DNA from: Sternotherus odoratus
Lineage: Eukaryota; Chordata; Testudines; Kinosternidae
Direction: 5' to 3'
Length of the DNA: 64,000 nt
Assembly (NCBI GenBank): GCA_032164245.1
Contig: JAVMKO010000026.1
Location: 584,598 to 648,597, forward strand
The first letter of the stretch is position 1; each line of letters starts with the position of its first letter. Below, piece after piece: positions 31,800-54,094 of the stretch. The notes under the pieces are model-generated. The model was not told the DNA's origin and did no database searches. It saw only the letters and a list, made by a program, of their open reading frames with translations. A program made the translations under genes and the position numbers.

Positions 31800-32050
31800 G
31801 GGAGAGAGGAGGAGGAGGGGGCTGTTTGGGTGGGAGAGGGGGCTGTTGAGGGAAAGGCTCGCAGGGGTGTGGAGTGGATGGGGAGAAAGGGGGGCTGTTG
31901 GGGGCGGGGTCGCAGGGGTGGGGCACTGAGGGGCCAGTTGGGGAGAATGGGAGGGCTGTTGGGGGAGGGGGTCTCAAGGCTGGGGCGCGGGGGGCCAGCT
32001 GGGGGGAAAAGGGAGGGCTGTTTGGGGAGGGGTCGCAGGGCAGCTGCTCG
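31800..32050 (+). repeat. G-rich minisatellite in borealin intron 1
   Basis: About four diverged ~60-bp units containing GGGAGGGCTGTTGGGGG-type and GGGTCGCAGGGG blocks. Multiple runs of four or more G on one strand give G-quadruplex potential just downstream of the promoter. Confidence 0.75.
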
Positions 32051-32569
32051 AGGGGAAGACCTGCAGATGCCCCCTTTTCCCTCCCCTCACGTCCCTCTGT
32101 GAGCCCCGGGGGTCGCACAGGGGTGGCGAGGTGCCAGCTCCATGCCCCAGTGAAATGATTGCTCTGTTCTAATTCGGAAGGGGTCACCCCCAGAGGTGAC
32201 TGTGTGAAAAGGGGTCACCAGGGCCCTGGTTTGAAAACCGCTTTTGTTTACTCTAGCGAGAGGCGATGCGGATTGGGGCGGGGCCCCCACTGCTGGAGCA
32301 GCCCCATGTTCAGACAAGCCCCTGCCAGGCTCTCAGGCCATCAGTGGTGCCTCTGCTGCCTGGTCATGGTGCTGGGGAACCACTCCCCTGCGTGGGGCGC
32401 CAATGCAGACTCTGCTGTGGCTTACAATAGTCCTAGGAGCCCTGGTTTTCAATAAGGATAGAGCAGCAGTAGCTCCCAGAAGACTAGGGGCCTCTTGTCT
32501 CTGACTGTCCCCTTCTTGTGTGAACCCAACTGGCTGTTTCTGTTCAGCCCCAGAACTTCATCCGACACC

Positions 32570-35500
32570 ATGGAACCATCCAGGAAGAAAACTAGCAAAA
32601 ACAATGTGAGGAAGAAAACCAGGAAAAACAATGTGCAGAAGAAAAAGCTCGCTGCATTTTTAAAGGACTTTGACCGTGAAGGTAATCATTGGGGAAAACA
32701 AGTTTTATGAATGAGTGCAAAGGCTTCAGGGTCCTGAGTTGTTTTCCAGGTGTGACGGAGTAGGAATACTGTGGGTGTGCCTCAGTTTCCCCAATGCATT
32801 TCTTAAGTGTCTATGTGAAGGAATAGGGGCTGATAGTGTAAGCAAGCAGGCAACACCCTCTCTTCAGGTGTCCATACCTGAAGCTGTAATCTCACTCCAA
32901 GTGGGGGAGGGAGGTCACCTGACCTGGCTGAGCCAGAGGGGAGAAGGGGCTGGAGAGAGTGAGTCTGCACCTGGCTGGAGAGAGGGGTTTGAGTCTGAAG
33001 CTGGGTGGGCAGAAGGGAGGCAGGCCCAGGCAGGGTCTGGCCTCCCTGGGCCTCCAAAATGGATCCAGCTGAGGGGTTCGGGTACCTACAAGCTTGGTGT
33101 TAGACCATGTACCTGCCGACAAATAAACCTCTGTTTTGCTGCCTGGCTGAGAGTCCTGTCTGACTGTGGACTGGGGTGCAGAATCCACTGGCTCCCCCAA
33201 GACCCCGCCCAGGCTGGCTTGCTGGGGGAAGTGCACAGAGGGGCAGAAGGTGCTGAATGCTCCGAGGTCAGACCCAGGAAGGTTGAAGTGGGTACCCTTG
33301 AAGCTCCTAGCCTTGGAAACAGGCTGTGTATGGAGAGGGGACACTTCCCCCAGAATCCTATCTGGCTTCATAGGGAGCAAGTTCCAAGCCATCGCCCGGC
33401 ACTCCGTGACACCAGGTTAATTTAATGCTGGTGAAAGTTATTGTCTTGACAACGCTGGAGACTGACACCTAAGGACATTGAAGTCCTGTACAGGCAGGAC
33501 AGATACAGCATAAAAGCCAGAGCTTTGATCCAAAAGGATGACTTTGAGGGATTTGAGAAGGTGGTTTAATTCTTCAGGTTCATGCAATGCTTGTACTTTC
33601 CTGAGGATTCTGTCCAGGAGGCTACTTGTGATGAGTATGCTGCAATGTGCATGCTGGTCTACTAAGAATTAAACTAAAATAGGAACTCTTTTCAGAGGTC
33701 ACTGGCAGCTGTCAAATACTAAATCTGGGTGCTCATTAATAGGATATTAGAGACACAAGGTACGTGAGGTAATATCTCTTATTGAACTAACTTCTGTTGG
33801 TGAGAAACAGGCGTGCATGCTTATGTAGAGCTCTTCTCCAGAGCTGGGAAATGTACTCTGTGTCCCAGCCAAATACAAGGTAGAACAGATTGTTCAGCAT
33901 AAGTAGTTAATATATATTTCAAGGACCATTCAGTGTGAAGTGGCCTGTTAATACCTTTCCAGTTATTGGTGGGAGGTTTAGTGGGTTATAGATTGTTGTA
34001 ATTAACCATAAATTCAGTGTGTGTGTCTGAATTCAGGTCATGATTTTTACTATCTAGCAAAGTTATGAATTTAAGTTCCCAGGCTCATCTTTTGAAGGTG
34101 TTGCACAGGTTTCCTTTGAGGATGTCCGACACAGAGTGATCACTTTGTGAAAAGTGTGCACCCTAGAGGTGATGGAGTACTTTTGTCTTTTATCATTTTT
34201 CTGTGTGAGTTCATTCAAAAGCATAGTGATTGCCTGGTTTTACCCACATGGTTGTCACTGAGGTACATTTAGTTCCCTGGCTGAAGTACACCACATGTTG
34301 TGATAGGCATGTTTAGAAGCCATGGATTTTGAGAGGTGTGTTGTAAGAGGATATGGCTAAACCACCCTGAACACACCCAATCCTATCTGATCTCAGAAGC
34401 TAAGGAGGGTCCGGCCTGGGTAGTACTTGGATGGGAGACCTCCTGGGATACCAGGTGCTGTAGGCTTAACATTGTGTGGGGCTAGCAACTCCACCCCATA
34501 AGGAAACCAATTGCTACTGAAACACCAACACCAGTTGGTGGCCCATACCCCGGCTGGGGGGTGACAGGCAAAGAGAGAGTTGTAAGAGGTGTTCATCGTT
34601 ATAGCAGTGGAGATATGTCTATAGGTTTTGCATCTGTTGTTCTGGCAGTGCCTGGTGCTGCTTTGAGTTTAATGTGTCCTGGTCTGTGCAGAACTTTTTT
34701 CTGGTGGGATTGGGGGGTTGTTTGAAGGCCAGAAGAGGGGGTTCAGGAAAGATTTCTTTCAGGATGCGGTCCCCATCAAGTATGGGATGTAATTGTTTAT
34801 GATACCCTGTAGGTGGTAGGTGACATTCTGTTCCACCTTGTGGAATTCTTCCACTAACTTAGCTACTGCCTCTCAGGGAGCTGGATTGCCTACACCAATG
34901 GATGAAACCCTGTGTATACGCAGAAGCACTGCAGACATACCTTTATACGGTTCAGTTAATTTTCTACCATTGACTCACAGCAAATGAAAATATAAGTGCC
35001 CAAAATGGCTCATTTGGGAAGAAATACATTGGATCAGAAAAGTGTGTTCACTAGGCAGTAGATTTTTGCTGATATTCAGAGAAATATAAATTCAAGCCCT
35101 GATATGTAAATCCCTGAATAACACTTGTGTTCTATGTAGTAATCAATCACAATTCTTTTTTTCTTTTAGTCCAAATGAGAATTGATCGGATACAAACAGA
35201 TGGGCAAAGGCTTATCAATGAATTGGATAAACTTTATGACACAGAAATCCTCAGACTTCCTGAGGAACTGAGAAACATGAACTGGCTTGACTACTTTGGT
35301 ATGATTCATCCACTCCAATATATATTGACTAAATAGTTCAAAAATGTACTACATTTAGAGCTCTAAGTGAGTTTATAAGTCATTCATCCAGTTAGTGGAC
35401 TCTGATTAGTGACGTATCCTAGTTGCATGATTTTTCAGAAACGTAATTACTATTTACATTATCTATAATTACATAACATTATTTGTTTTGTAACAGATCA

Positions 35501-38500
35501 CATTTAAAGTCAGTATGTTGGATAATTTTATTTGTATGAAAGTGCTCATTCAAAATAAGTCTTCCAATGTTTTTCCTTTGGATGTCTTAAACTGACTGGC
35601 ACAGGAGACATGAAGGGGTGGCACTGAGTTAACTGGTTGCAAAATCATGTGTTGGGGGGGAAAAAAATCTTTGGGGACAAGAGGCAGCAAATTGAAGATC
35701 CTATCCATATGGATTCATAGACAACCACAGTTTTTCTGTTTACAATAAATTCTGCTTTTCCACTAGTTACTTTATCTTAAGCTGGTCAGTAACTGTCAAG
35801 AAATGTTTATTGTTTGGCTGTTTATTGTTTAATTCTACCCAATTATTAAAATTTTAATATTGTATAAATTACTCTGGTTATACATTGATTAAAAACATGT
35901 TCTATTTCCAGCTAAAGAAGGAAGTAAGAAGGCCTTAGAAGAAGCAGCAACGGTAGGTAACATACCTGTAGTATACCTAGTAAGGCAATAGAAACCTTTT
36001 TTCTGGTACTACTGTACAATGTTTTTAGGGACCTAATTTTTATTTAAACCATTGCATCATTAGACAAATTAGAGGACTTGGCCAAAAGAAATCTGATGAG
36101 GTTCAACAAGGACAAGTGCAGAGTCCTTATTTAGGACAAAAGAATCCTCTGCACTGCCAAGTCTTGGGAACCCCTTCCTAAAAATGAATATTTCTAGGGG
36201 TTTTCTCCTTTACCTGAGTATAAATTATAAAAACAGTGATCTTGGAAATATAACGTTTGTTTTATGACATGCTCATTACACACTATTTATTATTATTTAT
36301 CATTACTGTGCTTTTATTACATTATGAAAATGGCAACACTCTTCCAAGATCTCACTTTTGTAGCTTGTATCACTTTGAATAAGCCTCCATGTTCACCCCC
36401 CCCCCCATTCAAATGCTAGAAGAATAACCCACCCTCCCTGATCGGAGATAACAAGCTGGTTCAGCCTTTTTACCTCCCACCTGGTTCTTGCCTACTTTTC
36501 TATACCTGCCTCTGGACACTTCCACTGCTTGCATCCGACAAAGTGGGTATTAGCCCACGAAAGCTTATGCTTCAAAACTTTATAGTTAGTCTTTAAGGTG
36601 CCACAGGACTTTGTTACCTCTGCTATTCCAGACTAACATGGCTACCTCTCTGATTCTTTATAAGACAAGGCTCCTATGTTTCATCAAGGAGCATCAGATG
36701 TGAAACAGCATGAAGGTATTTAAGAAGCCAACTCAGAGTTCCTCCTACACAAGCATTCAGGTCTTGAGCAGTCCGGGCAAACATGCACGTTACAACAAAG
36801 CTTAAACTTGTTCTTCATAATAATTTAAAAAACCAATACTTTAATTTTAAAAACAGCAAAAAAATCCACCTCTCTCTCTCTCTCTCCAGTTCTTAAAAGG
36901 AGTCTTGAAGTTTAAATCTCAGTGTGATAGAGATGCTTCTTTGATCTTCATAGCTCTTGGAAGTCCAGGGGCTCCAGGCTGCTGGACCTGTGCTGCCCGG
37001 AGTTCCAAGGGACAGCTCTGTCCGCTATTAGTGACTTTTTTCCAGAGACCCCTCTGTAACATTTCACGAATCCCCGGGGGATCATAAATCCCAGTTTGGG
37101 AACCACTGGTCTCAACTGAAGCTCTACATGGCTCAGCTGCAGTGTTTCAAGTGTAGAGAAGCCCCAAGTGAAGCATTTGGTAGCTGGGAGACTTTTCCTG
37201 AATTCTGTAACTACCTCTTTGCTTGTTTTACTCAGAGACTTCTCAGGTTTCAGAAAACTGACCTTGTAATTTAAGCTGAGTCTCAGCAGTTGATGGAGGG
37301 TGTCTGCCTTTGATTTTTAAAGAAGTGGAAAATAGCAAGTGTCCTGATATCTTTTCTCTCATGGCCCAGATAGCCGAAAGTTTTGAATTTAAGCAGTCTT
37401 TTTATAGGAAGCCATTTTTCTGCAATGAAATCTTGGCTTGCCTACCAGTGATACCAGTCGACTAAACAGGTTATCAGTTAAACAATGCTTCCTTACTTTT
37501 ATCTTGCCTTGTCTCGCTCACTAGAGAATATGCATTTCTTTGTAAACCAGAAAACTTCTATGTTGGGATTGGACTGAAATGTTTAGGTGTTGGGAATAGC
37601 TGTAGCAGCTGAATAAAGCCCGTCCGGTACTAAATGACTGTGCAGGTCCTGCAAACTGTTACCATTTCTAAAATACTGGTGAAGTGTGAACACCGCAAAG
37701 TGCAAAGCAGCATAGAAGCATTTTTATTGTAAAATAATTATGGGCTTACACTGGTGTTTGCAGGCAGTTTGGAATGAGTTAGTTCTTTACTAATAATACA
37801 CATGGTATTGTGATTGCTTTTGGTTTTAGGCAGATTTGGAACTATCAGAAATAAACAAACTTACAGCAGAAGTTATCCAGACGCCTTTCAGAATGGTCAA
37901 GAAAGGTCAGTTTACAAGCATTGCTGAATGTTCTGGGTGCAATCAATAGTGGAATGTTTTTTTGTTCCTTATGGATCTTGTCAACTATCTTCCAACTCTC
38001 ATTAACTGGCCTAAATAGGTTTCAAATAAACAATCGTTGCTTCAGTCTACGTGATGTTACATCGGGAGAGTATTAACTTAGATTTTCTAAATCGTATAGA
38101 AATGTTATTTACATTTGTTTATGCCTTCCCTATAATCCCTTTCCTTATAAAATCTTACTTTATCTTTGTATAAGTATATAATTTCTAGTTCCATAACTTG
38201 TTTGCCAAACAAATTTCACAACTGTTTTCTTTTCTCCCTACCTGTACGTGGGTAATTTAATACGCTTCAAATTTTTAAAATTTGGACACTATTTTCTCCT
38301 AGCTGAAAAATCCAAACAGGATATTGATGCCATTGAAGAAGAAACAAAACTTAGTTTGGTCCCTGTAGCAAAGAAGAGGAAACAGGATAGCAAAGCCCTT
38401 GAAGAATCCGAGCTAGGACCTGAATCTGTTGCTCCAAAAACAGGGAAGGTAAATAACTGATCTTATTGTGGTGGTGATGGCCCAGGCAGGAAATGAGTTG

Positions 38501-41500
38501 ACTGTTGGTCGAGGTGATGCTTATAGGCTTGCTTGCCATAGGCAAGCTGCCTGTTTTTAATCAGTATTCTAGGTTTATGTAATCTGTTTTAAATTTATAA
38601 ACTATAACTCTACAACTAGTTTTATTTTGCAGAAGAATATATATATTTCTCCTCTGATGCAACTTAAATCACATGACCATCTGAAAATGTTACTTATTCT
38701 ATTTGTAATAACCAAAATGACTATGATGGGAAGAGAGAGATTTCTCATTTTGTTTTCTTATACATTTGAAAAAGCTCTCTGTAGTCTTTCACTGTTTCCT
38801 CTCTATACTATACAGTTAATTTTCCTAGTTTGTTTCTGTGTGAAAGACCACACATTGGGGAGAGAATTTCTTTTGAAAGGGGGAAACGTGTAAAACCACA
38901 AGCTGTCAGGAGACTTCAGGGTATTTTCATATAGTTTGCCTCTCTCCAACTGTAGTTTCCCCCTTTGCTTCATAGCCTGAATTCTATTTGTCTTGAGATC
39001 AGAGTCCACATGCTGTGTGAGTGCCTTAGATAGATTCTGTTATGAGGTAGAACACTACTACTGAAAGTGTAAAGAACCATTTTATATCCCTTTTCGTTTA
39101 AATTGCATGTTCAACTTCCATCATGTTCTGGGAGCAGAATTCTCTTTAACCAAGACTGCTCCAACTAACTTTGATATCTATGGAAAAGAATTCTGCACAA
39201 ATTCCTGTGTCTTCCCCAGCTTAGCTCTAGGCTATGATATAGCCAAGACTCAAACAGGAAAGGTTTTCCACAGTTTTGATCATCTGAGAAGCCAACTCAG
39301 AGTTCCTCCTACACAAGCATTCAGGTCTTGAGCAGTCCGGGCAAACATGCACGTTACAACAAAGCTTAAACTTGTTCTTCATAATAATTTTAAAAACCAA
39401 TACTTTAATTTTAAAAACAGCAAAAAAATCCACCTCTCTCTCCAGTTCTTAAAAGGAGTCTTGAAGTTTAAATCTCAGTGTGATAGAGATGCTTCTTTGA
39501 TCTTCATAGCTCTTGGAAGTCCAGGGGCTCCAGGCTGCTGGACCCGTGCTGCCCGGAGTTCCAAGGGACAGCTCTGTCCGCTATTAGTGACTTTTTTCCA
39601 GAGACCCCTCTGTAACATTTCACGAATCCCCAGGGGATCATAAATCCCAGTTTGGGAACCACTGGTCTCAACTGAAGCTCTACATGGCTCAGCTGCAGTG
39701 TTTCAAGTGTAGAGAAGCCCCAAGTGAAGCATTTGGTAGCTGGGAGACTTTTCCTGAATTCTGTAACTACCTCTTTGCTTGTTTTACTCAGAGACTTCTC
39801 AGGTTTCAGAAAACTGACCTTGTAATTTAAGCTGAGTCTCAGCAGTTGATGGAGGGTGTCTGCCTTTGATTTTTAAAGAAGTGGAAAATAGCAAGTGTCC
39901 TGATATCTTTTCTCTCATGGCCCAGATAGCCGAAAGTTTTGAATTTAAGCAGTCTTTTTATAGGAAGCCATTTTTCTGCAATGAAATCTTGGCTTGCCTA
40001 CCAGTGATACCAGTCGACTAAACAGGTTATCAGTTAAACAATGCTTCCTTACTTTTATCTTGCCTTGTCTCGCTCACTAGAGAATATGCATTTCTTTGTA
40101 AACCAGAAAACTTCTATGTTGGGATTGGACTGAAATGTTTAGGTGTTGGGAATAGCTGTAGCAGCTGAATAAAGCCCGTCCGGTACTAAATGACTGTGCA
40201 GGTCCTGCAAACTGTTACCATTTCTAAAATACTGGTGAAGTGTGAACACCGCAAAGTGCAAAGCAGCATAGAAGCATTTTTATTGTAAAATAATTATGGG
40301 CTTACACTGGTGTTTGCAGGCAGTTTGGAATGAGTTAGTTCTTTACTAATAATACACATGGTATTGTGATTGCTTTTGGTTTTAGGCAGATTTGGAACTA
40401 TCAGAAATAAACAAACTTACAGCAGAAGTTATCCAGACGCCTTTCAGAATGGTCAAGAAAGGTCAGTTTACAAGCATTGCTGAATGTTCTGGGTGCAATC
40501 AATAGTGGAATGTTTTTTTGTTCCTTATGGATCTTGTCAACTATCTTCCAACTCTCATTAACTGGCCTAAATAGGTTTCAAATAAACAATCGTTGCTTCA
40601 GTCTACGTGATGTTACATCGGGAGAGTATTAACTTAGATTTTCTAAATCGTATAGAAATGTTATTTACATTTGTTTATGCCTTCCCTATAATCCCTTTCC
40701 TTATAAAATCTTACTTTATCTTTGTATAAGTATATAATTTCTAGTTCCATAACTTGTTTGCCAAACAAATTTCACGACTGTTTTCTTTTCTCCCTACCTG
40801 TACGTGGGTAATTTAATACGCTTCAAATTTTTAAAATTTGGACACTATTTTCTCCTAGCTGAAAAATCCAAACCGGATATTGATGCCATTGAAGAAGAAA
40901 CAAAACTTAGTTTGGTCCCTGTAGCAAAGAAGAGGAAACAGGATAGCAAAGCCCTTGAAGAATCAGAGCTAGGACCTGAATCTGTTGCTCCAAAAACAGG
41001 GAAGGTAAATAACTGATCTTATTGTGGTGGTGATGGCCCAGGCAGGAAATGAGTTGACTGTTGGTCGAGGTGATGCTTATAGGCTTGCTTGCCATAGGCA
41101 AGCTGCCTGTTTTTAATCAGTATTCTAGGTTTATGTAATCTGTTTTAAATTTATAAACTATAACTCTACAACTAGTTTTATTTTGCAGAAGAATATATAT
41201 ATTTCTCCTCTGATGCAACTTAAATCACATGACCATCTGAAAATGTTACTTATTCTATTTGTAATAACCAAAATGACTATGATGGGAAGAGAGAGATTTC
41301 TCATTTTGTTTTCTTATACATTTGAAAAAGCTCTCTGTAGTCTTTCACTGTTTCCTCTCTATACTATACAGTTAATTTTCCTAGTTTGTTTCTGTGTGAA
41401 AGACCACACATTGGGGAGAGAATTTCTTTTGAAAGGGGGAAACGTGTAAAACCACAAGCTGTCAGGAGACTTCAGGGTATTTTCATATAGTTTGCCTCTC

Positions 41501-44500
41501 TCCAACTGTAGTTTCCCCCTTTGCTTCATAGCCTGAATTCTATTTGTCTTGAGATCAGAGTCCACATGCTGTGTGAGTGCCTTAGATAGATTCTGTTATG
41601 AGGTAGAACACTACTACTGAAAGTGTAAAGAACCATTTTATATCCCTTTTCGTTTAAATTGCATGTTCAACTTCCATCATGTTCTGGGAGCAGAATTCTC
41701 TTTAACCAAGACTGCTCCAACTAACTTTGATATCTATGGAAAAGAATTCTGCACAAATTCCTGTGTCTTCCCCAGCTTAGCTCTAGGCTATGATATAGCC
41801 AAGACTCAAACAGGAAAGGTTTTCCACAGTTTTGATCATCTGAGAAGCCAACTCAGAGTTCCTCCTACACAAGCATTCAGGTCTTGAGCAGTCCGGGCAA
41901 ACATGCACGTTACAACAAAGCTTAAACTTGTTCTTCATAATAATTTTAAAAACCAATACTTTAATTTTAAAAACAGCAAAAAAATCCACCTCTCTCTCCA
42001 GTTCTTAAAAGGAGTCTTGAAGTTTAAATCTCAGTGTGATAGAGATGCTTCTTTGATCTTCATAGCTCTTGGAAGTCCAGGGGCTCCAGGCTGCTGGACC
42101 CGTGCTGCCCGGAGTTCCAAGGGACAGCTCTGTCCGCTATTAGTGACTTTTTTCCAGAGACCCCTCTGTAACATTTCACGAATCCCCAGGGGATCATAAA
42201 TCCCAGTTTGGGAACCACTGGTCTCAACTGAAGCTCTACATGGCTCAGCTGCAGTGTTTCAAGTGTAGAGAAGCCCCAAGTGAAGCATTTGGTAGCTGGG
42301 AGACTTTTCCTGAATTCTGTAACTACCTCTTTGCTTGTTTTACTCAGAGACTTCTCAGGTTTCAGAAAACTGACCTTGTAATTTAAGCTGAGTCTCAGCT
42401 GTTGATGGAGGGTGTCTGCCTTTGATTTTTAAAGAAGTGGAAAATAGCAAGTGTCCTGATATCTTTTCTCTCATGGCCCAGATAGCCGAAAGTTTTGAAT
42501 TTAAGCAGTCTTTTTATAGGAAGCCATTTTTCTGCAATGAAATCTTGGCTTGCCTACCAGTGATACCAGTCGACTAAACAGGTTATCAGTTAAACAATGC
42601 TTCCTTACTTTTATCTTGCCTTGTCTCGCTCACTAGAGAATATGCATTTCTTTGTAAACCAGAAAACTTCTATGTTGGGATTGGACTGAAATGTTTAGGT
42701 GTTGGGAATAGCTGTAGCAGCTGAATAAAGCCCGTCGGTACTAAATGACTGTGCAGGTCCTGCAAACTGTTACCATTTCTAAAATACTGGTGAAGTGTGA
42801 ACACCGCAAAGTGCAAAGCAGCATAGAAGCATTTTTATTGTAAAATAATTATGGGCTTACACTGGTGTTTGCAGGCAGTTTGGAATGAGTTAGTTCTTTA
42901 CTAATAATACACATGGTATTGTGATTGCTTTTGGTTTTAGGCAGATTTGGAACTATCAGAAATAAACAAACTTACAGCAGAAGTTATCCAGACGCCTTTC
43001 AGAATGGTCAAGAAAGGTCAGTTTACAAGCATTGCTGAATGTTCTGGGTGCAATCAATAGTGGAATGTTTTTTTGTTCCTTATGGATCTTGTCAACTATC
43101 TTCCAACTCTCATTAACTGGCCTAAATAGGTTTCAAATAAACAATCGTTGCTTCAGTCTACGTGATGTTACATCGGGAGAGTATTAACTTAGATTTTCTA
43201 AATCGTATAGAAATGTTATTTACATTTGTTTATGCCTTCCCTATAATCCCTTTCCTTATAAAATCTTACTTTATCTTTGTATAAGTATATAATTTCTAGT
43301 TCCATAACTTGTTTGCCAAACAAATTTCACGACTGTTTTCTTTTCTCCCTACCTGTACGTGGGTAATTTAATACGCTTCAAATTTTTAAAATTTGGACAC
43401 TATTTTCTCCTAGCTGAAAAATCCAAACCGGATATTGATGCCATTGAAGAAGAAACAAAACTTAGTTTGGTCCCTGTAGCAAAGAAGAGGAAACAGGATA
43501 GCAAAGCCCTTGAAGAATCAGAGCTAGGACCTGAATCTGTTGCTCCAAAAACAGGGAAGGTAAATAACTGATCTTATTGTGGTGGTGATGGCCCAGGCAG
43601 GAAATGAGTTGACTATTGGTCGAGGTGATGCTTATAGGCTTGCTTGCCATAGGCAAGCTGCCTGTTTTTAATCAGTATTCTAGGTTTATGTAATCTGTTT
43701 TAAATTTATAAACTATAACTCTACAACTAGTTTTATTTTGCAGAAGAATATATATATTTCTCCTCTGATGCAACTTAAATCACATGACCATCTGAAAATG
43801 TTACTTATTCTATTTGTAATAACCAAAATGACTATGATGGGAAGAGAGAGATTTCTCATTTTGTTTTCTTATACATTTGAAAAAGCTCTCTGTAGTCTTT
43901 CACTGTTTCCTCTCTATACTATACAGTTAATTTTCCTAGTTTGTTTCTGTGTGAAAGACCACACATTGGGGAGAGAATTTCTTTTGAAAGGGGGAAACGT
44001 GTAAAACCACAAGCTGTCAGGAGACTTCAGGGTATTTTCATATAGTTTGCCTCTCTCCAACTGTAGTTTCCCCCTTTGCTTCATAGCCTGAATTCTATTT
44101 GTCTTGAGATCAGAGTCCACATGCTGTGTGAGTGCCTTAGATAGATTCTGTTATGAGGTAGAACACTACTACTGAAAGTGTAAAGAACCATTTTATATCC
44201 CTTTTCGTTTAAATTGCATGTTCAACTTCCATCATGTTCTGGGAGCAGAATTCTCTTTAACCAAGACTGCTCCAACTAACTTTGATATCTATGGAAAAGA
44301 ATTCTGCACAAATTCCTGTGTCTTCCCCAGCTTAGCTCTAGGCTATGATATAGCCAAGACTCAAACAGGAAAGGTTTTCCACAGTTTTGATCATCTGAGA
44401 AGCCAACTCAGAGTTCCTCCTACACAAGCATTCAGGTCTTGAGCAGTCCGGGCAAACATGCACGTTACAACAAAGCTTAAACTTGTTCTTCATAATAATT

Positions 44501-47500
44501 TTAAAAACCAATACTTTAATTTTAAAAACAGCAAAAAAATCCACCTCTCTCTCCAGTTCTTAAAAGGAGTCTTGAAGTTTAAATCTCAGTGTGATAGAGA
44601 TGCTTCTTTGATCTTCATAGCTCTTGGAAGTCCAGGGGCTCCAGGCTGCTGGACCCGTGCTGCCCGGAGTTCCAAGGGACAGCTCTGTCCGCTATTAGTG
44701 ACTTTTTTCCAGAGACCCCTCTGTAACATTTCACGAATCCCCAGGGGATCATAAATCCCAGTTTGGGAACCACTGGTCTCAACTGAAGCTCTACATGGCT
44801 CAGCTGCAGTGTTTCAAGTGTAGAGAAGCCCCAAGTGAAGCATTTGGTAGCTGGGAGACTTTTCCTGAATTCTGTAACTACCTCTTTGCTTGTTTTACTC
44901 AGAGACTTCTCAGGTTTCAGAAAACTGACCTTGTAATTTAAGCTGAGTCTCAGCAGTTGATGGAGGGTGTCTGCCTTTGATTTTTAAAGAAGTGGAAAAT
45001 AGCAAGTGTCCTGATATCTTTTCTCTCATGGCCCAGATAGCCGAAAGTTTTGAATTTAAGCAGTCTTTTTATAGGAAGCCATTTTTCTGCAATGAAATCT
45101 TGGCTTGCCTACCAGTGATACCAGTCGACTAAACAGGTTATCAGTTAAACAATGCTTCCTTACTTTTATCTTGCCTTGTCTCGCTCACTAGAGAATATGC
45201 ATTTCTTTGTAAACCAGAAAACTTCTATGTTGGGATTGGACTGAAATGTTTAGGTGTTGGGAATAGCTGTAGCAGCTGAATAAAGCCCGTCGGTACTAAA
45301 TGACTGTGCAGGTCCTGCAAACTGTTACCATTTCTAAAATACTGGTGAAGTGTGAACACCGCAAAGTGCAAAGCAGCATAGAAGCATTTTTATTGTAAAA
45401 TAATTATGGGCTTACACTGGTGTTTGCAGGCAGTTTGGAATGAGTTAGTTCTTTACTAATAATACACATGGTATTGTGATTGCTTTTGGTTTTAGGCAGA
45501 TTTGGAACTATCAGAAATAAACAAACTTACAGCAGAAGTTATCCAGACGCCTTTCAGAATGGTCAAGAAAGGTCAGTTTACAAGCATTGCTGAATGTTCT
45601 GGGTGCAATCAATAGTGGAATGTTTTTTTGTTCCTTATGGATCTTGTCAACTATCTTCCAACTCTCATTAACTGGCCTAAATAGGTTTCAAATAAACAAT
45701 CGTTGCTTCAGTCTACGTGATGTTACATCGGGAGAGTATTAACTTAGATTTTCTAAATCGTATAGAAATGTTATTTACATTTGTTTATGCCTTCCCTATA
45801 ATCCCTTTCCTTATAAAATCTTACTTTATCTTTGTATAAGTATATAATTTCTAGTTCCATAACTTGTTTGCCAAACAAATTTCACGACTGTTTTCTTTTC
45901 TCCCTACCTGTACGTGGGTAATTTAATACGCTTCAAATTTTTAAAATTTGGACACTATTTTCTCCTAGCTGAAAAATCCAAACCGGATATTGATGCCATT
46001 GAAGAAGAAACAAAACTTAGTTTGGTCCCTGTAGCAAAGAAGAGGAAACAGGATAGCAAAGCCCTTGAAGAATCAGAGCTAGGACCTGAATCTGTTGCTC
46101 CAAAAACAGGGAAGGTAAATAACTGATCTTATTGTGGTGGTGATGGCCCAGGCAGGAAATGAGTTGACTGTTGGTCGAGGTGATGCTTATAGGCTTGCTT
46201 GCCATAGGCAAGCTGCCTGTTTTTAATCAGTATTCTAGGTTTATGTAATCTGTTTTAAATTTATAAACTATAACTCTACAACTAGTTTTATTTTGCAGAA
46301 GAATATATATATTTCTCCTCTGATGCAACTTAAATCACATGACCATCTGAAAATGTTACTTATTCTATTTGTAATAACCAAAATGACTATGATGGGAAGA
46401 GAGAGATTTCTCATTTTGTTTTCTTATACATTTGAAAAAGCTCTCTGTAGTCTTTCACTGTTTCCTCTCTATACTATACAGTTAATTTTCCTAGTTTGTT
46501 TCTGTGTGAAAGACCACACATTGGGGAGAGAATTTCTTTTGAAAGGGGGAAACGTGTAAAACCACAAGCTGTCAGGAGACTTCAGGGTATTTTCATATAG
46601 TTTGCCTCTCTCCAACTGTAGTTTCCCCCTTTGCTTCATAGCCTGAATTCTATTTGTCTTGAGATCAGAGTCCACATGCTGTGTGAGTGCCTTAGATAGA
46701 TTCTGTTATGAGGTAGAACACTACTACTGAAAGTGTAAAGAACCATTTTATATCCCTTTTCGTTCTGGGAGCAGAATTCTCTTTAACCAAGACTGCTCCA
46801 ACTAACTTTGATATCTATGGAAAAGAATTCTGCACAAATTCCTGTGTCTTCCCCAGCTTAGCTCTAGGCTATGATATAGCCAAGACTCAAACAGGAAAGG
46901 TTTTCCACAGTTTTGATCATCTGAGAAGGGGAACAGTGAGTCTTGTTCTTCAGTTCCTGTTACCAGTGTTAGTTCAGTTATGAGACACTTCTTCAGAACT
47001 GGAGGTGAGCTGTGGTTTGATCATTAAACAGTAAATAATTCATGAGTTCTGTGTGTTCCAGGCGAAGATATCAAGCAAACTGCCAGTTCTTAAGAGCAGA
47101 AGAGCTCCATCAGCAAGCGTGAGATACATTAGTAAAAGGTAAGAGTCTGGAGTGGTGTGAATCCCCCTTCTTCAATGTGGGGATGGAAAGGGGAGACCAG
47201 AAATGCAAAACTGCAGTCTTCGCTGCCAGGTCAAGAGGCATCACTTGAAATCAGGAGAAACTTCTAGTTTCCAAATACCCTCACATTGTTCTCCGCTCTT
47301 CTAACTAATAAAACAGATGCTCAGAACTGAGAAGCATCCGCTAAACTGATCTTTTAAGAGGGCGTCATCTTATCACTACCACTTTCTTTGAGCAGGTCAA
47401 ACAAAAATAACTTTGTCACTCCAGCCCTTGGCCGAGTCGCTGATGCCTGCACGGGGGGAAGCACCTCTACTGCCACCTTTAAGTTTGATTCCAGGTGAGT

Positions 47501-48600
47501 GTGCATTAAATAGCAAAGCCACGTAACTATTTATAGTATCCTGCAAAATGTGTCTCTCAAATATCCGCATTTGCCATCAAGGCATCTAGTGTGTCTTGCC
47601 GTTAGTCTGCATGAGATAAGACAGAACAGTTGTGATCTAGATTAGCTTGTTCCCATTCTGCCCCATGGCAGTGGCTGTTCATATCTGATGCATGTTGTAA
47701 GACCCATAATATAACACTTCACATATTCAAAGTGCTGGAGAAATATTGACTAACCTTCACAGCCCTGAAATTTTAAGGATGAGATTACTGAGGAAGAGAA
47801 GTGAGATTGTTTGACCACTGTTAGTAAAGTGTCACCAGCAGAGCTAGCATTAAAATTTGAGACTTTATGACTCCGTATTCATTTGTGCGTGGCTTATGTG
47901 CTCAGCCTTGTACTGTGCAATCTGCAAAATTGTAGTCTCTTTGTTTGAACTATCTCCACTCTGTTCCTTCTCTGTTCAAACACGTGCATCTGATACGTGC
48001 AAAAATACTAACTGTGGTTTGTAACCTATTTCTTAAAACCGCCTCTGTATCTGATGAGAGGAGGATAGCTAATATAATACTGAGGTTTTTAAAAAGGCCC
48101 CGGAGCTGTGCAACTAAAGCCAGAGACATTTTGAAATATCAGCCTAAATATGTCAAATGTCTTCTCCAAATTGTAAAATATGGAATATTAAGATGACTAC
48201 AACACATCACTTAATTGCCTTGTGTTTGGGCTTCAGCATTTCGGTTGACTTAGAGCCAGAAAACCTGTAGGCTCATAGAAGAGGATAGATGGAGGTCAGA
48301 ACTAGAAAAAAGCAGATATGATAAATCATGCCCTAGTGTAATCAGAGTTTTTTTGTCAGTTCAGGTGGTTTCTGACAAGCTCTATTGGTTTCATGCTTCA
48401 AGTTACACATTTTTCTCCAACCTTCTGTTTCCCTTGAAAATGAGATGTTTGAAATCTGTAGTTGGGGAGAATCTCAGGAAATGTGCTTCTGATCATTTTA
48501 ATTGTCTGGAATAAAATCATTCAGCAATAACTTGGGAATGTCTTTCAGGATTTTCAAGACACCAGGTCTACGCACCCCAGCAACACGTGGGCATGTTTAA
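32570..48600 (+). CDS. Borealin-family chromosomal passenger protein, with amplified exons
   Basis: Coding exons are 32,570-32,681 (ATG in CACCATGG context), 35,170-35,298 and 35,912-35,952, then an exon pair present four times (A: 37,830-37,905, 40,386-40,461, 42,941-43,016, 45,496-45,571; B: 38,303-38,448, 40,859-41,004, 43,414-43,559, 45,969-46,114), then 47,062-47,138, 47,396-47,494 and 48,549-48,600. All borders are GT-AG and phases match throughout. Family marks are KLAAFLKDFDREV, LYDTEILRLPEELRNMNWLDYF, the EINKLTAEVIQTP motif and IFKTPGLRTP. Borealin joins INCENP and survivin in the Aurora B passenger complex at centromeres; its N-terminal part forms the helical bundle with them. A TAA at 48,598-48,600 stops the frame before the C-terminal domain. 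Predicted length is 243 residues with one A-B pair and 465 with all four. It resembles borealin (CDCA8) and borealin-2 (CDCA9) and I cannot separate them by eye. A decaying paralogue is possible. Confidence 0.85.
32584..32637 (+). repeat. 27-bp in-frame tandem repeat in borealin exon 1
   Basis: Two units of 27 bp starting GAAGAAAAC and containing AAAAACAATGTG encode KKTSKNNVR then KKTRKNNVQ. This lengthens the basic N-terminal tail ahead of the conserved KLAAFLKDFDRE helix. Confidence 0.85.
32751..33411 (+). mobile_element. Solo LTR (661 bp) in borealin intron
   Basis: TGTGACGGAGTAGG... to ...GGCACTCCGTGACA with a perfect 5-bp duplication CCAGG (32,746-32,750; 33,412-33,416). AATAAA near 33,122 gives + orientation, the same as the host gene, so it offers a poly(A) signal inside the intron. 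A minus-oriented relative lies at 4,259-4,827. Confidence 0.9.
34351..34578 (+). mobile_element. 5S rRNA-headed retroposon with 11-bp TSD
   Basis: The first ~117 bp (to 34,467) is clearly 5S rRNA-derived: ACCACCCTGAACAC, AGCTAAGGAGGGTC (A box region), TAGTACTTGGATGGGAGACC (C box region) and GGTGCTGTAGGCTT. It is followed by ~111 bp of unrelated sequence. The whole 228 bp is flanked by an 11-bp duplication GTTGTAAGAGG (34,340-34,350; 34,579-34,589), the mark of LINE-type retroposition. It could be a 5S-derived SINE or a one-off chimera. It is not a functional 5S gene, because several conserved bases are changed. Confidence 0.85.
36425..36654 (-). mobile_element. SINE-like interspersed repeat, single copy
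   Basis: On the minus strand this reads from ...GTAGCCATGTTAGTCTGGAA through CAAAGTCCTGTGGCACCTTA and CTTTCGTGGGCTAATACCCA onward. The same unit forms the hairpin insertion at 52,195-52,419. Its left boundary is approximate. It lies just outside the amplified segment, about 70 bp before copy 1, and is present once. Confidence 0.65.
36723..39286 (+). repeat. Array copy 1 (exons A1 37,830-37,905, B1 38,303-38,448)
   Basis: The most distinct copy: TC run of nine or more units near 36,868, GGACCTGTGC instead of GGACCCGTGC, and AATCCCCGGGGG instead of AATCCCCAGGGG. Exon B reads KSKQDIDAIEEE where the others read KSKPDIDAIEEE (CAG versus CCG). It is probably nearest to the ancestral single copy. 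Confidence 0.9.
39287..41842 (+). repeat. Array copy 2 (exons A2 40,386-40,461, B2 40,859-41,004)
   Basis: Shares the short TC run and the K-P change with copies 3 and 4, but keeps CCCGTCCGG like copy 1. It is therefore intermediate in the series. Confidence 0.9.
41843..44397 (+). repeat. Array copy 3 (exons A3 42,941-43,016, B3 43,414-43,559)
   Basis: Carries the one-base deletion CCCGTCGG shared with copy 4. Private changes are AGCTGTTGATGG near 42,400 and GACTATTGG near 43,611. Confidence 0.9.
44398..46923 (+). repeat. Array copy 4 (exons A4 45,496-45,571, B4 45,969-46,114)
   Basis: Shares CCCGTCGG with copy 3 and has a private 29-bp deletion near 46,764 (GTT microhomology). Its right end passes at AGAAG into single-copy intron leading to the exon at 47,062. 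Confidence 0.9.
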
Positions 48601-49212
48601 GTAGTCTCTGCAAACGGCAGCCCTCTTGCTAACAGCAATGATGTCATTATTACAGTCTCTCTTGGAGGAGGGGAGGTAAAGCAGAAAGTTATTGAAAATG
48701 TAGGGAAATATTTCCGTGGGTTTTGAAGTGCACCAAATGCAATTTAAAGTAATGGCTGATAGCAATATGTGCCATGGTACAATACAGAAAAGGTGTGAGA
48801 TGAGTCTGTGGTCTGATGCTGCATCTGGTCCTCTTTGTAACTGTCCTGTTTTATCAGTAACCTTATGCTGTTCCCAGGACAGTGGGTCCATCGCTAGCTA
48901 TAAAAGCAGAACATGGTTCCTGCTCTTAAATAGAATGATCTGTCAATCTTTCTAATTTATAATCCACATGCTTCAATCTGTTTTGGCTCTTTCACTGATT
49001 TCACATGCAAACTCACATGTACCAGTCTGACAGCTGAACGGTAACTGAGATTTATGGTCTTTTCTGTACAGAGCATTCGTTTAGCAGCCAGTGAGCTGAC
49101 CAAAAGGAATATGAGTTATCTCAATCCAGAGACCCTGGGAATTATGAAGAAGTTATCAATAAGTCAATATATACTTGGCTATGAATTGCAACTAGTTTGT
49201 GGTGGTGCCTAG
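48601..49212 (+). pseudogene. Untranslated borealin C-terminal exons behind the stop
   Basis: After the TAA at 48,598 the same frame continues with conserved borealin sequence: ANGSPLANSNDVIITVSLGG up to a GTAAAG donor at 48,676. A further exon starts at 49,072 (acceptor TGTACAG) with SIRLAASELTKRN and LNPETLGIMKKLS. From 49,156 it diverges from what is expected of the family's last residues and stops at TAG, 49,210-49,212. In borealin this C-terminal part forms the dimerisation domain. Its preservation suggests that the stop is recent. Confidence 0.75.
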
Positions 49213-49688: not shown

Positions 49689-50731
49689 CTGTGACAGTGC
49701 TGTTCCTGGTGAGATCCAACTGTGAGTGTCAGATTAGGACAGATTGCTTCCAAAGGGGCAACTACAGCCCAAAGCTGGGGTTTTTCCACACTAAGGCAAA
49801 CCAAACCAGCTAAACAGAAAAGACTTTGGTCTCACCCCACTGGCTAACCACAAGTCACACAAGCAATTCCCTTAGACACTCCAGATTCCCAGTATCACCA
49901 CCACCAGCCACCTGTCCTGGGGATCAATGGTTATGAAAACCAATCCCCCAAATAAAAAAAACGGTTCTCCCCAATTCCAAAGAATCAGGCCCCAGACCCA
50001 GCTCAATATACAAATCAGATCTTACCACAAATCACGCTGTTGCCAATCCTTTAGGATCTAAAGGTTTATTATACAAGGAAAAAGGTATAGGTGAGGGTTA
50101 AGAATGGTTAAAGAAATCAATTACATGCAGTAATGGCACATCTCTTGGTTTAGGCTTGCAGCAAAGGTAGAATAAACTGCAGGTTCAAATCAAAGTCTTT
50201 GGAGAGCATCTCCTGCAGAGATGGGGCAGTACCTTTGTCCAGAGATCCCTGAGTAGCAAAGTTCCATCCAAAGCTGGAAACAAGGCAGGCTGAAGACTGG
50301 AGGTAAAAGACAAAATGGAGACTGCTTCTTCCAGCTTTTATAGACTCTCTCTTCTGGGCCAAGACACTCCTCCTTCTTTTGCAGAGTCTGGTTGCAAAAT
50401 GGAGGTTTATAGTCCCAAGGTCCCATCACCAGACTCTCCAGGATTCAGTTTCTGACCAGGCAGTTGATATTCTTAGAGCAGCTCGGGTGTGGGCAGGCAT
50501 ATACAAAGTCCATTGTGTGGTTGATGTCCCTTAATGGGCCATCAGGCAGCCCCAGCGTGTCTGAGCCTTCACAGGAGCCAAGCCAAGTACAGGTACCTTT
50601 AACTTTAGTTACAAAATAGATACACACTTATGGAATAGATACACACATAAGACACCTGTTATGACCCCCTTCACATAATATTTCGTACCCCAGTGATCTA
50701 TACAGTACCAAATTATTTCAGTACCATGACA
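49689..50731 (-). mobile_element. 3' LTR of outer element
   Basis: TGTGACAGTGCTG... to ...ACCATGACA on the plus strand. It differs from the 5' LTR by scattered substitutions, a ~10-bp gap next to the inverted AATAAA, and an extra copy of ATAGATACACAC near 50,630. It is therefore older than the inner insertion. Confidence 0.9.
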
Positions 50732-50945
50732 CCCCCAACGCAAAATTGATGCAGGAAGGGATGATAAAACAGCGCTGACTGCATCCCAAAAGCTCCCCCG
50801 TCCGTGGGGTTGTGTTATGTAACCTTGCCAAGAGCTAAAGAAAACAGCTACTTTATACATACAAGCTCTGGCAAATGTTTGGAACCCAAGTACCATCAAA
50901 TTAATATAGATATCAATGTTGTCCATAGCACAGCAATCTTGGCAT

Positions 50946-52180
50946 TTAGCCATGGAAACAATAGGGTACTGTGCCTCGGCTTCCATTTTTACACTGCACA
51001 TGTGGTGTGGAATGTCTTTTTTCCCTTTGGAAAGTCTCACCACTGTTCACAGGTCTCAACTGTGACACATCAGTAGAACAAGGCCTCTTTACATAAAGTG
51101 TGTTCCCCTGTATTTCTCTTGACATGTCCAAAGGATTTTTCACAAGACTAGGCCCATTGTACAATTTTACAGTTTCAGGTAACAACACAGTAGTTACACA
51201 AATTGCCATTAGCAATAACAATAATTTCATTGCAAGTGTCCATTTACAATTAGGTTTGTCAAGCCATGCCTTTGGGTCAACACCATTAGAATTTTGGCCT
51301 TTTAGGGTCACCTTGTGGCTTTCCTTTGCAAAGTTAAAATCTCTTTTCCCTCCTTGCCCTGAAGGATCAAATCCTGCTTTCTCTTGCTTAACAGAATTTC
51401 CTGGCTGATCTGGAGGATTTTTTGTGCTAGCTGCCATTAGCAAGTCCTTCTCCCCCCATTCAGCCATGTAATCTGCATCTTCACAGACTGAAGCAAGCTT
51501 TGAGACTGTATTACATCTTAAAGGGATATCCTTCATTTTCATTAACCAGCTAGTCTCAAAGTTCTGTTCTTTCCTTACCCAGAGACCACAAGTCACATCC
51601 AAAGTGTTTAGAGATGAGAGTATACCAACTACTATACTAACTGCACAACTGTCCTGCTCTGAAGATCCCTTTACCCAGTCATCTCTCTGAGCCTGAGACA
51701 CCGACTGTTCACTTACAGAATTAGCATGGAGACTTTTTCCTTTGAACAACCTTCTCTCCCCAACAAGCTGGTTCAACACAGCCACTTGGTTATAGGGCTG
51801 TCCCAATTCCTCCTTGCTCTCTATTGTCAAGCTGGTGACAGGTAACACACCCAAATCACCTTTCTGCTCTCCTTGTGCCCTGGCTGGGATATTACTCTGA
51901 TTAGACAGAGTTGCTGCTACACCCTTTTCCAGCCACACACTAGCAACAGGCAAAGTATAAGCACCAGAATCGTTTGGTCTCTGGGCTCTTGCTAAGACAT
52001 TAACCAGATTAATCCTAGTTATAGAGCCTTCCTTCCCAGCAGACACCAACTCAGGACCATTTCCTTTCTGAGCTTTAGCTGAATCCAAAACCAACTCTGA
52101 CACAAATGCCCCACTCTCAACCAGCCCAGGCTGACAGGCACTTTCTGTCCGCTCTACAGACAACGAAGATTTAGAGACAC
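50946..52180 (-). CDS. Outer element: Ser/Glu-rich stretch plus signal-anchor segment
   Basis: Open frame on the minus strand downstream of the hairpin insertion. The first ~300 residues are Ser/Glu/Val-rich without a known domain, and are homologous to the long frame of the inner element (both contain EELGQPYNQVAV). Near the end a hydrophobic segment (MKLLLLLMAICVTTVLL) after a basic stretch looks like a signal peptide or membrane anchor. It is followed by cysteines and an REKR dibasic site, as at the start of an envelope-type protein. The frame stops at 50,946 and nothing envelope-like follows before the LTR, so the envelope part is truncated. Function unproven. Confidence 0.55.
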
Positions 52181-52194
52181 ACTCTCCTTCACTA

Positions 52195-52419
52195 ATCAGG
52201 GTGGTAGCCGTGTTAGTCTGGAATAGCAGCGGTAACAAAGTCCTGTGGCACCTTAAAGACTAACTATAAAGTTTTGAAGCATGAGCTTTCGTGGGCTAAT
52301 ACCCACTTCGTCGGATGCAGGCAGTAGATGCCTGCATCCGACGAAGTGGGTATTAGCCCACGAAAGCTCATGCTTCAAAACTTTATAGTTAGTCTTTAAG
52401 GTGCCACAGGACTTTGTTA
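52195..52419. mobile_element. Perfect 91-bp hairpin (SINE-like) insertion with 14-bp TSD
   Basis: The 225-bp insert is flanked by ACTCTCCTTCACTA on both sides (52,181-52,194; 52,420-52,433). It has a 38-bp head (GGTAGCCGTGTTAGTCTGG region), then arms 52,233-52,323 and 52,329-52,419 that are exact reverse complements, separated by GTAGA. The arm is the body of the repeat found once at 36,425-36,654. It breaks the outer element's reading frame. Confidence 0.95.
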
Positions 52420-52433
52420 ACTCTCCTTCACTA

Positions 52434-53247
52434 GACACACAGCTTGGGATTTCACTTCCCTTGTCCCAGCACACAGACAACTGCTTGGAGACTGAGGTAG
52501 CTTCCTCCACAGGCAAGTCAATACCCCTGACAGACACAGTCCCACTTCTCCACACAGGTAAGGCATAGGGACACTTCTCTTCCACTATCCTTGCCTTCCC
52601 AAACTGCTGCCTAGTCTTATTTAAACCTTCCTCACCAGGCACATTGCCACTGCCAACAGATACACTGCGGCTTTTTGCAGGTTCACTCTCACAAGCTGTA
52701 CCAGCCAAAACTATTTCACCCTTTCCTTCCTCAGTTAGGGCTTTAACCTGACTCTTCACTGCAACCTGTTCCAGAGAAACCGTTTCCTGATCCATAAGTT
52801 CTTCCTGCACTGTACCTAATTCCAGACTCACTTCTGAGACATTAGACAGACATTTAGAAATTTTACACACAGGCCAACTGCTTCTCCGAACAGACAAACT
52901 TTTAGAACAGCCTTTCATAGGCACGATTTCAGGACTACTTCTCTTCTGCGCCCAGTCTTTGTTAGCTTGATTGAACATAGCTTTGATATCATTTCCAATC
53001 ATAAGATCCTTCGGGATCGTATCCTTCACTCCCACAACCATGGTGCCCTCAAATCCCTTCCACTTAAGGTGGATTTTAGCCAAAGGCACTCTGACAAAAT
53101 ACTCAGAAAAGGCTACAACAGTTACCTCCTCACCGGGCCAGTAATCTTCCTCCCTGACCAGGCTTGCTTTAACCAAAGTAATATCTGCTGCAGTATCCCT
53201 CCAAGCCATGCACCTTACTCCGTTAACCTCTGCACTGCTAATAAACT
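52434..53247 (-). CDS. Outer element: retroelement aspartic protease and following linker
   Basis: The minus-strand frame begins right at the inner element's boundary. It holds a retropepsin-like core: MAWRDTAADITLV (catalytic Asp at about 53,195-53,197), an intermediate KWKGFEG segment, and MIGNDI, which resembles the second conserved motif. The active-site triplet is DTA rather than the usual DTG/DSG. After the protease the frame continues into Ser/Glu-rich sequence shared with the inner element (EATSVSKQLSVCWDKGSEIP). In the intact element it would follow the Gag zinc knuckle directly. The inner insertion split that join. Confidence 0.75.
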
Positions 53248-54094
53248 TGTGGATTGCCACGGACTCGCAGGGGCGAGGAAAAATTGCAGGCCTGTTATTT
53301 ACCAGGTTGCACGTGGCAATAAACTATATAGGTAAGAGACGCAAGGGGAGTGTGGGTCAGGACGTGAGCTGCAGATGCACAGACACACACACAAGTAAAA
53401 ATTAATCAATTTAAAGTTTTACTGGGGATAATTACAAGGGGTAAGGGAGCAGTTTTTTGACTAACTAATAGACTTAATAAAACTTAAAACATGCAATGAC
53501 TAAAATGCCTACTAACAATATTTACAAACAAAGATGCAGCATTTAGTAATAATTCATACTTACAAATACAAACCAATGCATAACACGACCGGTAAACGTA
53601 GAAGCTCTATTTGAAACACGTGAGCTGAGAGAGAGGCTTCGAGGTGATCAGGCTCGGTTACGTGGGGTACACAGGATACACGGATACACGGGATTCGTTT
53701 TCCTCTCTCTGTCTGCACATGGCAGGCAGAAACATAAGTACCAACTATGACATCACAAAAGTGTCATAGGGGACGGGGCCCAAAACTTGTTTGTGTTCAC
53801 TTCTGATTGGCACAAGCAAAGTTTACACCAAGTAGGGGAGCAGGTGCCTCAAAGTCTGGCTTCGCCCCCAAAAGGGGAGGAAATGCATATTGTTATAGAA
53901 TGCACACAAAACTGAATGACAAAAGACGAGGCCAGGGCAGGAGCAGGTGACCCAAAGTCTGGCTTCACCCCCAAAAGGGGAGGAAATGCATATAGTTTTA
54001 GAATGTGTTCAAACCTGAATGACAAAAGAAGAGGCCAGGGCAATACCGGTATGGGCAAGTGTTTACAGGATGCAGACAGAAACTCATCTGAACA
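53248..54094 (-). mobile_element. 3' LTR of inner element
   Basis: 847 bp. It contains a ~103-bp tandem duplication (AAGTCTGGCTTC at ~53,850 and ~53,953), each unit with CCCCCAAAAGGGGAGG and AATGCATAT. It is unrelated in sequence to the outer element's LTR. Confidence 0.93.

What the first reader, a model, noticed from the sequence alone, without database searches (positions are those of the whole stretch)
36723..46923. Four-copy, frame-preserving amplification of a two-exon block in a borealin gene
A 2.55-kb segment with two consecutive coding exons is present four times in direct tandem. The exon pair is 222 nt and both outer borders are phase 0, so transcripts with one to four pairs all stay in frame. 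Each pair adds 74 residues containing EINKLTAEVIQTP and an acidic/basic linker. The splice sites of all eight exons are intact. The linker region of borealin lies between the INCENP/survivin-binding bundle and the C-terminal domain, so copy number could change spacer length or the number of binding or phosphorylation motifs. Near identity of the introns means either very recent amplification, gene conversion or an assembly artefact.
Basis: partly seen in the sequence, partly recalled or inferred. Interest (0 to 1): 0.88.

Follow-up and report, generated by a model that had tools for sequence, protein, structure and literature searches.

The report
Amplified, truncated turtle cell-division gene family
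A turtle genome carries a dozen near-identical, shortened copies of a chromosome-segregation gene, most of them near a chromosome end, and the copy in this window has also repeated one of its own coding blocks four times; whether the copies make protein is not yet known.

Summary
The four-copy array is real in the assembly: units at 36723-39286, 39287-41842, 41843-44397 and 44398-46928, with 0-0.31% substitutions between them, intact splice sites and in-frame 222-nt exon pairs. This is not the organism's CDCA8/borealin gene: that lies on another contig (C21), intact, with one exon pair. The window holds one of 12 nearly identical paralogous loci (20 exon pairs) on C20 (subtelomeric) and C26. 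All 12 share a premature stop (Tyr to TAA, 48598) and a lost splice donor after exon F. The predicted product keeps the INCENP/survivin-binding region and the DNA/nucleosome-binding loop but lacks most of the C-terminal dimerization domain. Upstream of the stop the frame is open, no frame-breaking indel occurred, and amino-acid-changing divergence exceeds noncoding divergence (6.5% vs 2.9%, P=0.0002); downstream it does not. Best reading: a lineage-specific, ampliconic, truncated borealin family that encodes, or recently encoded, a protein under positive selection. The main rival is a passively amplified pseudogene, favoured by a predicted mRNA-decay liability and by no visible constraint among copies. 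No expression data were available.

The parts
31818..32569 (+). 5' flank shared with CDCA8 on C21 (possible inherited promoter; includes minisatellite)
   Evidence: BLAST to C21; alignment of the last ~560 bp upstream of ATG
32570..32681 (+). exon e1, start codon ATG; carries a 27-nt in-frame insertion relative to CDCA8
35170..35298 (+). exon e2 (borealin helical-bundle region); 13 of 129 nt differ from CDCA8
35912..35952 (+). exon e3
36723..39286 (+). tandem unit 1 (2564 bp); exon A 37830-37905, exon B 38303-38448
39287..41842 (+). tandem unit 2 (2556 bp); exon A 40386-40461, exon B 40859-41004
41843..44397 (+). tandem unit 3 (2555 bp); exon A 42941-43016, exon B 43414-43559
44398..46928 (+). 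tandem unit 4 (2531 bp, 29-bp gap relative to units 1-3); exon A 45496-45571, exon B 45969-46114
47062..47138 (+). exon C
47396..47494 (+). exon D
48549..48675 (+). exon E, with in-frame stop TAA at 48598-48600 where CDCA8 has TAT (Tyr)
   Evidence: turtle alignment
49072..49158 (+). exon F relic; splice donor GTAAGT changed to ATAAGT
49689..60939 (-). provirus-like insertion in the last intron (LTR-like ends 49689-50731 and 59908-60939, 95.4% alike; SCAN/CCHC gag-like ORF); described only
61356..61357 (+). point where 447 bp of C21, including the last coding exon of CDCA8, are missing

Best explanation
The window carries one member of a lineage-specific, amplified family of C-terminally truncated borealin paralogs. 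SHOWN: the family and the intact CDCA8 on C21 are sister genes, sharing introns and about 0.75 kb of 5' flank. The family copies share a stop and a lost donor; in the window the last exon is deleted, and 8 of the other 11 loci align without a break across that deletion point. There are 12 loci (14 gene bodies) on C20 (subtelomeric) and C26. In some members the A-B exon pair is duplicated at a junction with 5-bp microhomology, to 2, 3 or (here) 4 units per locus. INFERRED: it is transcribed from the inherited 5' flank and makes a 243-aa protein (465 aa with four A-B pairs) that keeps the INCENP/survivin-binding bundle and the DNA/nucleosome-binding loop but cannot dimerise. It would enter the passenger complex as a competing or modified subunit. 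More A-B pairs lengthen the loop and multiply its IQTP and KKRK motifs. Upstream of the stop it evolved under positive selection, and copy number spread by unequal exchange.
For: In 12 of 12 C20/C26 loci the stop and the lost donor are shared, and every splice site of the exons present upstream is intact; 9 of 9 bodies with all exons are open to the stop. Consensus versus CDCA8 upstream of the stop: dN 0.065, dS 0.047, ratio 1.40. Nonsynonymous sites exceed noncoding DNA (161/5503 = 2.9%), P=0.00018; downstream of the stop they do not (P=0.78). Coding 40/702 vs noncoding 161/5503: Fisher P=0.0004, block resampling P=0.005. Substitutions are more clustered (15/40 vs 25/161, P=0.0035). Of 35 noncoding indels 25 break a frame of three, none of the 2 coding indels does (chance of none 0.04). 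Family branch 0.12 vs CDCA8 0.021. Pfam: full Nbl1_Borealin_N, only positions 1-49 of 118 of the C-terminal Borealin model. Human complex with borealin 10-221, lacking the dimerization domain, still binds Sgo1, threefold more weakly (PMC9253516, passages). The human loop, mainly residues 110-188, binds DNA (PMC6891087, passages).
Against: No expression evidence. The stop lies 75 nt upstream of the E-F junction, so a spliced mRNA would be a target of nonsense-mediated decay by the usual 50-55 nt rule (recalled). No AATAAA/ATTAAA lies between the stop and 49951, which is inside the provirus-like LTR. The N versus S contrast is not significant (window-based P=0.71). dS is also somewhat above noncoding (P=0.23 pre-stop, 0.08 overall). 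Among nine copies coding sites vary as much as noncoding (7/729 vs 82/8116), so no constraint is visible after amplification. Avoidance of conserved residues is only suggestive (6 of 31 changed positions at the 90% threshold, expected 10.2, P=0.06; P=0.13 at 80%; 83 of 120 listed homologs used). Exon e2 is missing in 5 of 14 bodies. One A-B module is charge-balanced (14 basic, 15 acidic), unlike the human loop (pI 10.4). In human tests a borealin without its first 9 residues and the last 59 bound nucleosomes noticeably less well (PMC6891087).
Confidence: 0.5

Rival explanations
1. A multi-copy pseudogene. The duplicated gene died (stop, lost donor, deleted last exon) and was carried along passively as a subtelomeric or unplaced segmental duplication expanded. 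The A-B array is one of many neutral rearrangements in it, and the intact exons merely reflect recency.
For: Three 3' lesions in the window; predicted decay of the mRNA; no deficit of coding variation among nine copies (7/729 vs 82/8116); e2 missing from 5 of 14 bodies; surroundings rich in satellites and transposon-like repeats; another part of the same gene (exons C-F) is amplified elsewhere to at least 21 further full-length copies, as passive repeats often are.
Against: A dead copy should diverge at the noncoding rate in its exons. Coding divergence upstream of the stop is twice that and mostly nonsynonymous. No frame-breaking indel occurred there although about 3 were expected. All disabling lesions seen lie at or after the stop, apart from the in-frame loss of e2 in 5 of 14 bodies.
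Confidence: 0.4
2. The count of four units is an assembly artefact (over-expansion, or joining of two haplotypes or macro-copies); the true allele has fewer units.
For: Units 2 and 4 have no substitution in 2526 aligned bp. The window is the last 64 kb of a 648,597-bp contig. The region is a near-identical multi-copy array. Contigs C26 and C20 share a near-identical copy (g1/h3, 0.1%) and C20 holds two with no substitution (h5/h7), so haplotypes may be mixed.
Against: Units 1, 3 and 4 carry differences from the others. The same junction occurs at three other loci, so the duplication exists independently of this assembly join.
Confidence: 0.15
3. A functional full-length borealin whose spacer is lengthened by up to 222 residues.
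For: Exons, phases and splice sites of A and B are all intact.
Against: Exon E with the stop is identical, and the exon F donor lost, in 12 of 12 loci; the last exon is deleted in the window; skipping exon E (127 nt) would shift the frame; CDCA8 on C21 is intact with one A-B pair.
Confidence: 0.02

Closest known systems
CDCA8/borealin (chromosomal passenger complex subunit), here the C21 gene
   Same: Same exon-intron order; gene-body DNA 93-95% alike in BLAST; same N-terminal Pfam domain
   Different: One A-B pair, intact C-terminal domain and last exon in CDCA8; truncation, 12 loci and 1-4 A-B units per locus in the family
Borealin-2 of fish, frog and chicken (CDCA9/Dasra A by recall)
   Same: A borealin relative with the Nbl1 domain; per PMC5289475 (passages) the rest of the protein has no significant similarity to borealin, and the trout gene is expressed only in ovary and testis
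   Different: A separate single gene with its own C-terminal half; the turtle family is a recent copy of CDCA8 (Borealin-2 was not included in that tree)
Drosophila Australin
   Same: Borealin paralog that replaces Borr in spermatocytes and lacks a protein segment (PMC8870657, passages)
   Different: Lacks a central stretch rather than the C-terminal domain; amplification not known to me (recall)
Ampliconic gene families in intragenomic conflict (mouse Slx/Slxl1 and Sly)
   Same: Multi-copy genes co-amplified and linked to conflict (abstract of PMC7743899)
   Different: Those are sex-linked and shown to be expressed; sex linkage and expression are unknown here

Membership tests
Borealin (CDCA8) family | N-terminal Nbl1_Borealin_N domain | tested here: met
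   PF10444 positions 1-57 of 57, 65.5 bits vs cut-off 24.4
Borealin (CDCA8) family | Complete C-terminal Borealin (dimerization) domain | tested here: not met
   Only positions 1-49 of 118 of PF10512 before the stop (30.2 bits, above the 19.5 cut-off); 1-117 in C21 CDCA8
Borealin (CDCA8) family | Common descent with CDCA8 | tested here: met
   Sister to C21 CDCA8 with support 100/99; homology continues through introns
Borealin (CDCA8) family | Incorporation into the passenger complex | not testable with these tools
   Needs protein binding assays
Ampliconic gene family | Multiple near-identical copies in an array | tested here: met
   12 loci printed as 100% identical over 2231 bp (rounded); 20 A-B units on C20/C26, 22 of 22 candidates of the genome search scored
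Ampliconic gene family | Germline expression or sex linkage | not testable with these tools
   No RNA or sex-specific reads held
Processed pseudogene | Intronless copy | tested here: not met
   Exons lie apart at intron distances in all 12 loci
Non-processed pseudogene | Exons diverge at the noncoding rate; random disablement | tested here: inconclusive
   Met after the stop, not met before it; no expression data

The most novel reading that the evidence does not exclude
[quoted passage not shown] Copy number is tuned at two levels: whole genes, and the loop-encoding exon pair inside a gene.
Probability: 0.15. Interest if true: 0.92.

Novelty: new variant of a known kind. Interest (0 to 1): 0.64.

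Why it matters
Borealin is normally single-copy and essential (general knowledge). If these copies are expressed, this is a natural large-scale experiment in passenger-complex dosage, dimerisation and loop length in a vertebrate, and a candidate for segregation conflict that could be tested directly by germ-line RNA-seq. If they are silent, it shows two separate parts of one cell-cycle gene being amplified as repeats in one genome, with one of them having diverged oddly fast in its exons.

Tried and rejected
TRF found no array, because its longest period is 500 bp. The idea that the window is the organism's CDCA8 was rejected: identity to the turtle borealins is similarly low for most of them (69-82%), and an intact gene lies on C21. 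My first noncoding estimates were unsafe: one search gave 2.97% with a local filter, and one search's 4.94% was inflated by a misaligned insertion at about 33.4-34.9 kb. Later tests use only noncoding columns from 34900 on (161/5503). Window-based dN/dS (1.26 before the stop) was replaced by the copy consensus, because one change (H to P in exon B) is not fixed among copies.

Conservation avoidance was only suggestive; 37 of 120 listed homologs were left out there (shorter than 255 aa, or one of three odd turtle models). I considered that the second amplified set (at least 21 full-length copies at 94-95% on small contigs and C18) might be full-length borealin genes. In the one copy whose upstream I sampled (C68), exons e1-B were not found at the expected places (549 bp next to exon C could not be fetched), and the genome search finds A-B only on C20, C26 and C21. 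So it looks like a 3'-part family. Its Tyr codon and GT donor are intact in 4 of 4 looked at, one of them with a shortened exon F. One search scored 40 of 1181 candidates, so its count is a lower bound, and the C21 gene is not among its rows. Species and sex chromosome could not be established; the tree suggests a cryptodire near Chelydra. No structure prediction was run, because spliced proteins are not window-contiguous. Paper searches for borealin duplication gave nothing relevant in what was listed (15 of 879 papers listed, none with the word borealin; 0 papers); only the open-licence library was searched.
Full report
OBSERVATION. Self-comparison of the window shows four direct copies at the coordinates given. 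The units are 2564, 2556, 2555 and 2531 bp and differ by 0-8 substitutions per pair. Unit 1 is the most distinct, unit 4 lacks 29 bp, and units 2 and 4 have no substitution in 2526 aligned bp. Each unit holds exon A (76 nt) and exon B (146 nt), 222 nt in all, phase 0 at both outer borders, with AG..GT at all eight exons. The unit borders share AGAAG, which suggests a microhomology-mediated first duplication (inference).

THE GENE. Exons e1, e2, e3, A, B, C, D, E and F were delimited. Exon E contains TAA at 48598-48600 where the 13 turtle borealin proteins aligned have Tyr, and the donor after F is ATAAGT. The predicted product is 465 aa with four A-B pairs, or 243 aa with one. Pfam finds the whole Nbl1_Borealin_N domain but only the first 49 of 118 positions of the C-terminal Borealin domain. 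[quoted passage not shown] define as 110-206 (PMC6891087, passages).

THE INTACT GENE. A single copy of all exons, with TAT at the stop position, GTAAGT after F, one A-B pair and a last exon, lies on C21 near 13.946-13.954 Mb. In a protein tree this C21 gene and the window gene are sisters (100/99) within turtles. The window gene's branch is 0.12 against 0.021, so the duplication is lineage-specific. The window lacks 447 bp of C21 that include the last exon, and carries a provirus-like insertion in the last intron. Eight of the other 11 loci align to the window without a break across the deletion point, so they share it; for g2, h6 and h8 the fetched stretch ends before it.

THE FAMILY. A genome search with exons C-F found 12 loci printed as 100% on C26 and C20. 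A search with exons A-B, in which 22 of 22 candidates were scored, found A-B only on C26, C20 and C21: 20 units plus the single C21 one, one of the 20 being split by an insertion. I read all 12 loci, the window being one. They contain 14 gene bodies, two of them partial (the first bodies of g2 and h6). A-B units per locus are 1 (eight loci), 2 (h8), 3 (g2 and h6, split over two bodies) and 4 (window). The duplication junction of the window recurs in g2, h6 and h8 and not in the eight single-unit loci. Informative sites in the units are mosaic, consistent with unequal exchange or conversion (inference). Among the eight other complete single-unit genes compared, the nearest relative of the window copy is h2, at 0.18%. 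C20 begins with telomeric repeats, and its loci lie 0.26-1.29 Mb from that end. C26 is a 648,597-bp contig, and the window is its end.

SELECTION. The comparison is between the consensus of nine copies and C21. Coding columns before the stop: 40/702 differ; noncoding columns from 34900 on: 161/5503 (Fisher P=0.0004; block resampling P=0.005). Without e2 it is 27/573 (P=0.03). After the stop, 7/162 (P=0.34). Nei-Gojobori on the consensus: before the stop dN 0.065, dS 0.047 (34 and 7 differences); after it dN 0.033, dS 0.082 (4 and 3). dN before the stop exceeds noncoding (P=0.00018) while dS does not (P=0.23). Coding substitutions are more clustered (15/40 vs 25/161, P=0.0035). Of 31 amino-acid changes before the stop in the window copy, 20 fall on the family's branch (one, H to P, is not fixed in all copies), 5 on CDCA8 and 6 are unclear (polarised by nine turtle proteins). 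Of 35 noncoding indels, 25 break a frame of three; both coding indels (27 and 3 nt) preserve it. The chance of no frame-breaking indel in 702 nt is 0.04. The chance of no new stop among 43 random substitutions is 0.27, so this is uninformative. Results against: the window-based N versus S test gives P=0.71; overall dS is marginally above noncoding (P=0.08); coding and noncoding sites vary alike among nine copies (7/729 vs 82/8116).

HOW IT MAY WORK. Shown in human proteins: the loop binds DNA and its deletion nearly abolishes nucleosome binding (PMC6891087). A region at 139-160 is needed for droplet formation (PMC10977965, passages). The dimerization domain raises Sgo1 affinity threefold (PMC9253516) and is proposed to help engage both nucleosome faces (PMC12624148; passages in each). 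Inferred: the turtle product would bind INCENP and survivin, and chromatin through one to four loop modules, but not dimerise. It could thus dilute or modify the complex. The KKRK and IQTP motifs repeat with the module; calling them a nuclear-localisation-like and a proline-directed phosphorylation motif is from recall. The module is charge-balanced (14 basic, 15 acidic), so it need not add DNA affinity. The stop is 75 nt before the E-F junction, and no polyadenylation hexamer lies between the stop and 49951, so decay of the mRNA is a real possibility.

COMPARISON. [quoted passage not shown] Multi-copy genes in segregation conflict are known in mouse (PMC7743899, abstract). I found no report of an amplified borealin family in what the searches listed (open-licence library only). 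In two searches of 5.8 billion protein sequences (best 120 shown of 348 and of 231), none of the 163 distinct proteins listed holds the exon-A motif more than once, and the longest is 382 aa.

VERDICT. The larger finding is a recent truncated borealin family with signs of selection on the part before the stop. Function, expression and the exact unit count remain open.

Noticed in passing
G000 contigs C63, C139, C183, C85, C115, C146, C185, C52, C147, C157, C68, C217, C100, C132, C83, C56 and C18; L038-L041, L045: A second amplified set matches only the 3' part of the gene (exons C-F): at least 21 full-length matches at 94-95% plus partial ones; C-terminal exons have the Tyr codon and a GT donor in 4 of 4 looked at, and A-B was found nowhere on these contigs. 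Two parts of one gene are thus amplified separately.
   Followed up: partly
49689-60939: Provirus-like insertion on the minus strand with SCAN/CCHC gag-like ORF; the insertion sits at the same place in other family loci but without the 53247-58497 stretch, so it predates the amplification.
   Followed up: partly
10224-15488: Adjoining satellite-like arrays, one with a unit of roughly 120 bp and one A-rich, about 72-83% alike among copies.
   Followed up: no
34349-34466: 5S rRNA-like sequence (75.9 bits) inside a 1.4-kb stretch that is absent from the C21 gene.
   Followed up: no
24631-25239: C2H2 zinc-finger ORF on the minus strand.
   Followed up: no
P0067: Emydura macquarii has an annotated 'borealin-like' protein on a small contig, on a long branch sister to its own borealin, suggesting an independent borealin duplication in another turtle.
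   Followed up: partly
L014-L016, L029-L031, L034: Exon e2 is missing in 5 of 14 gene bodies (g2, h6, h8); it is a multiple of three (129 nt), so the frame survives its loss.
   Followed up: partly
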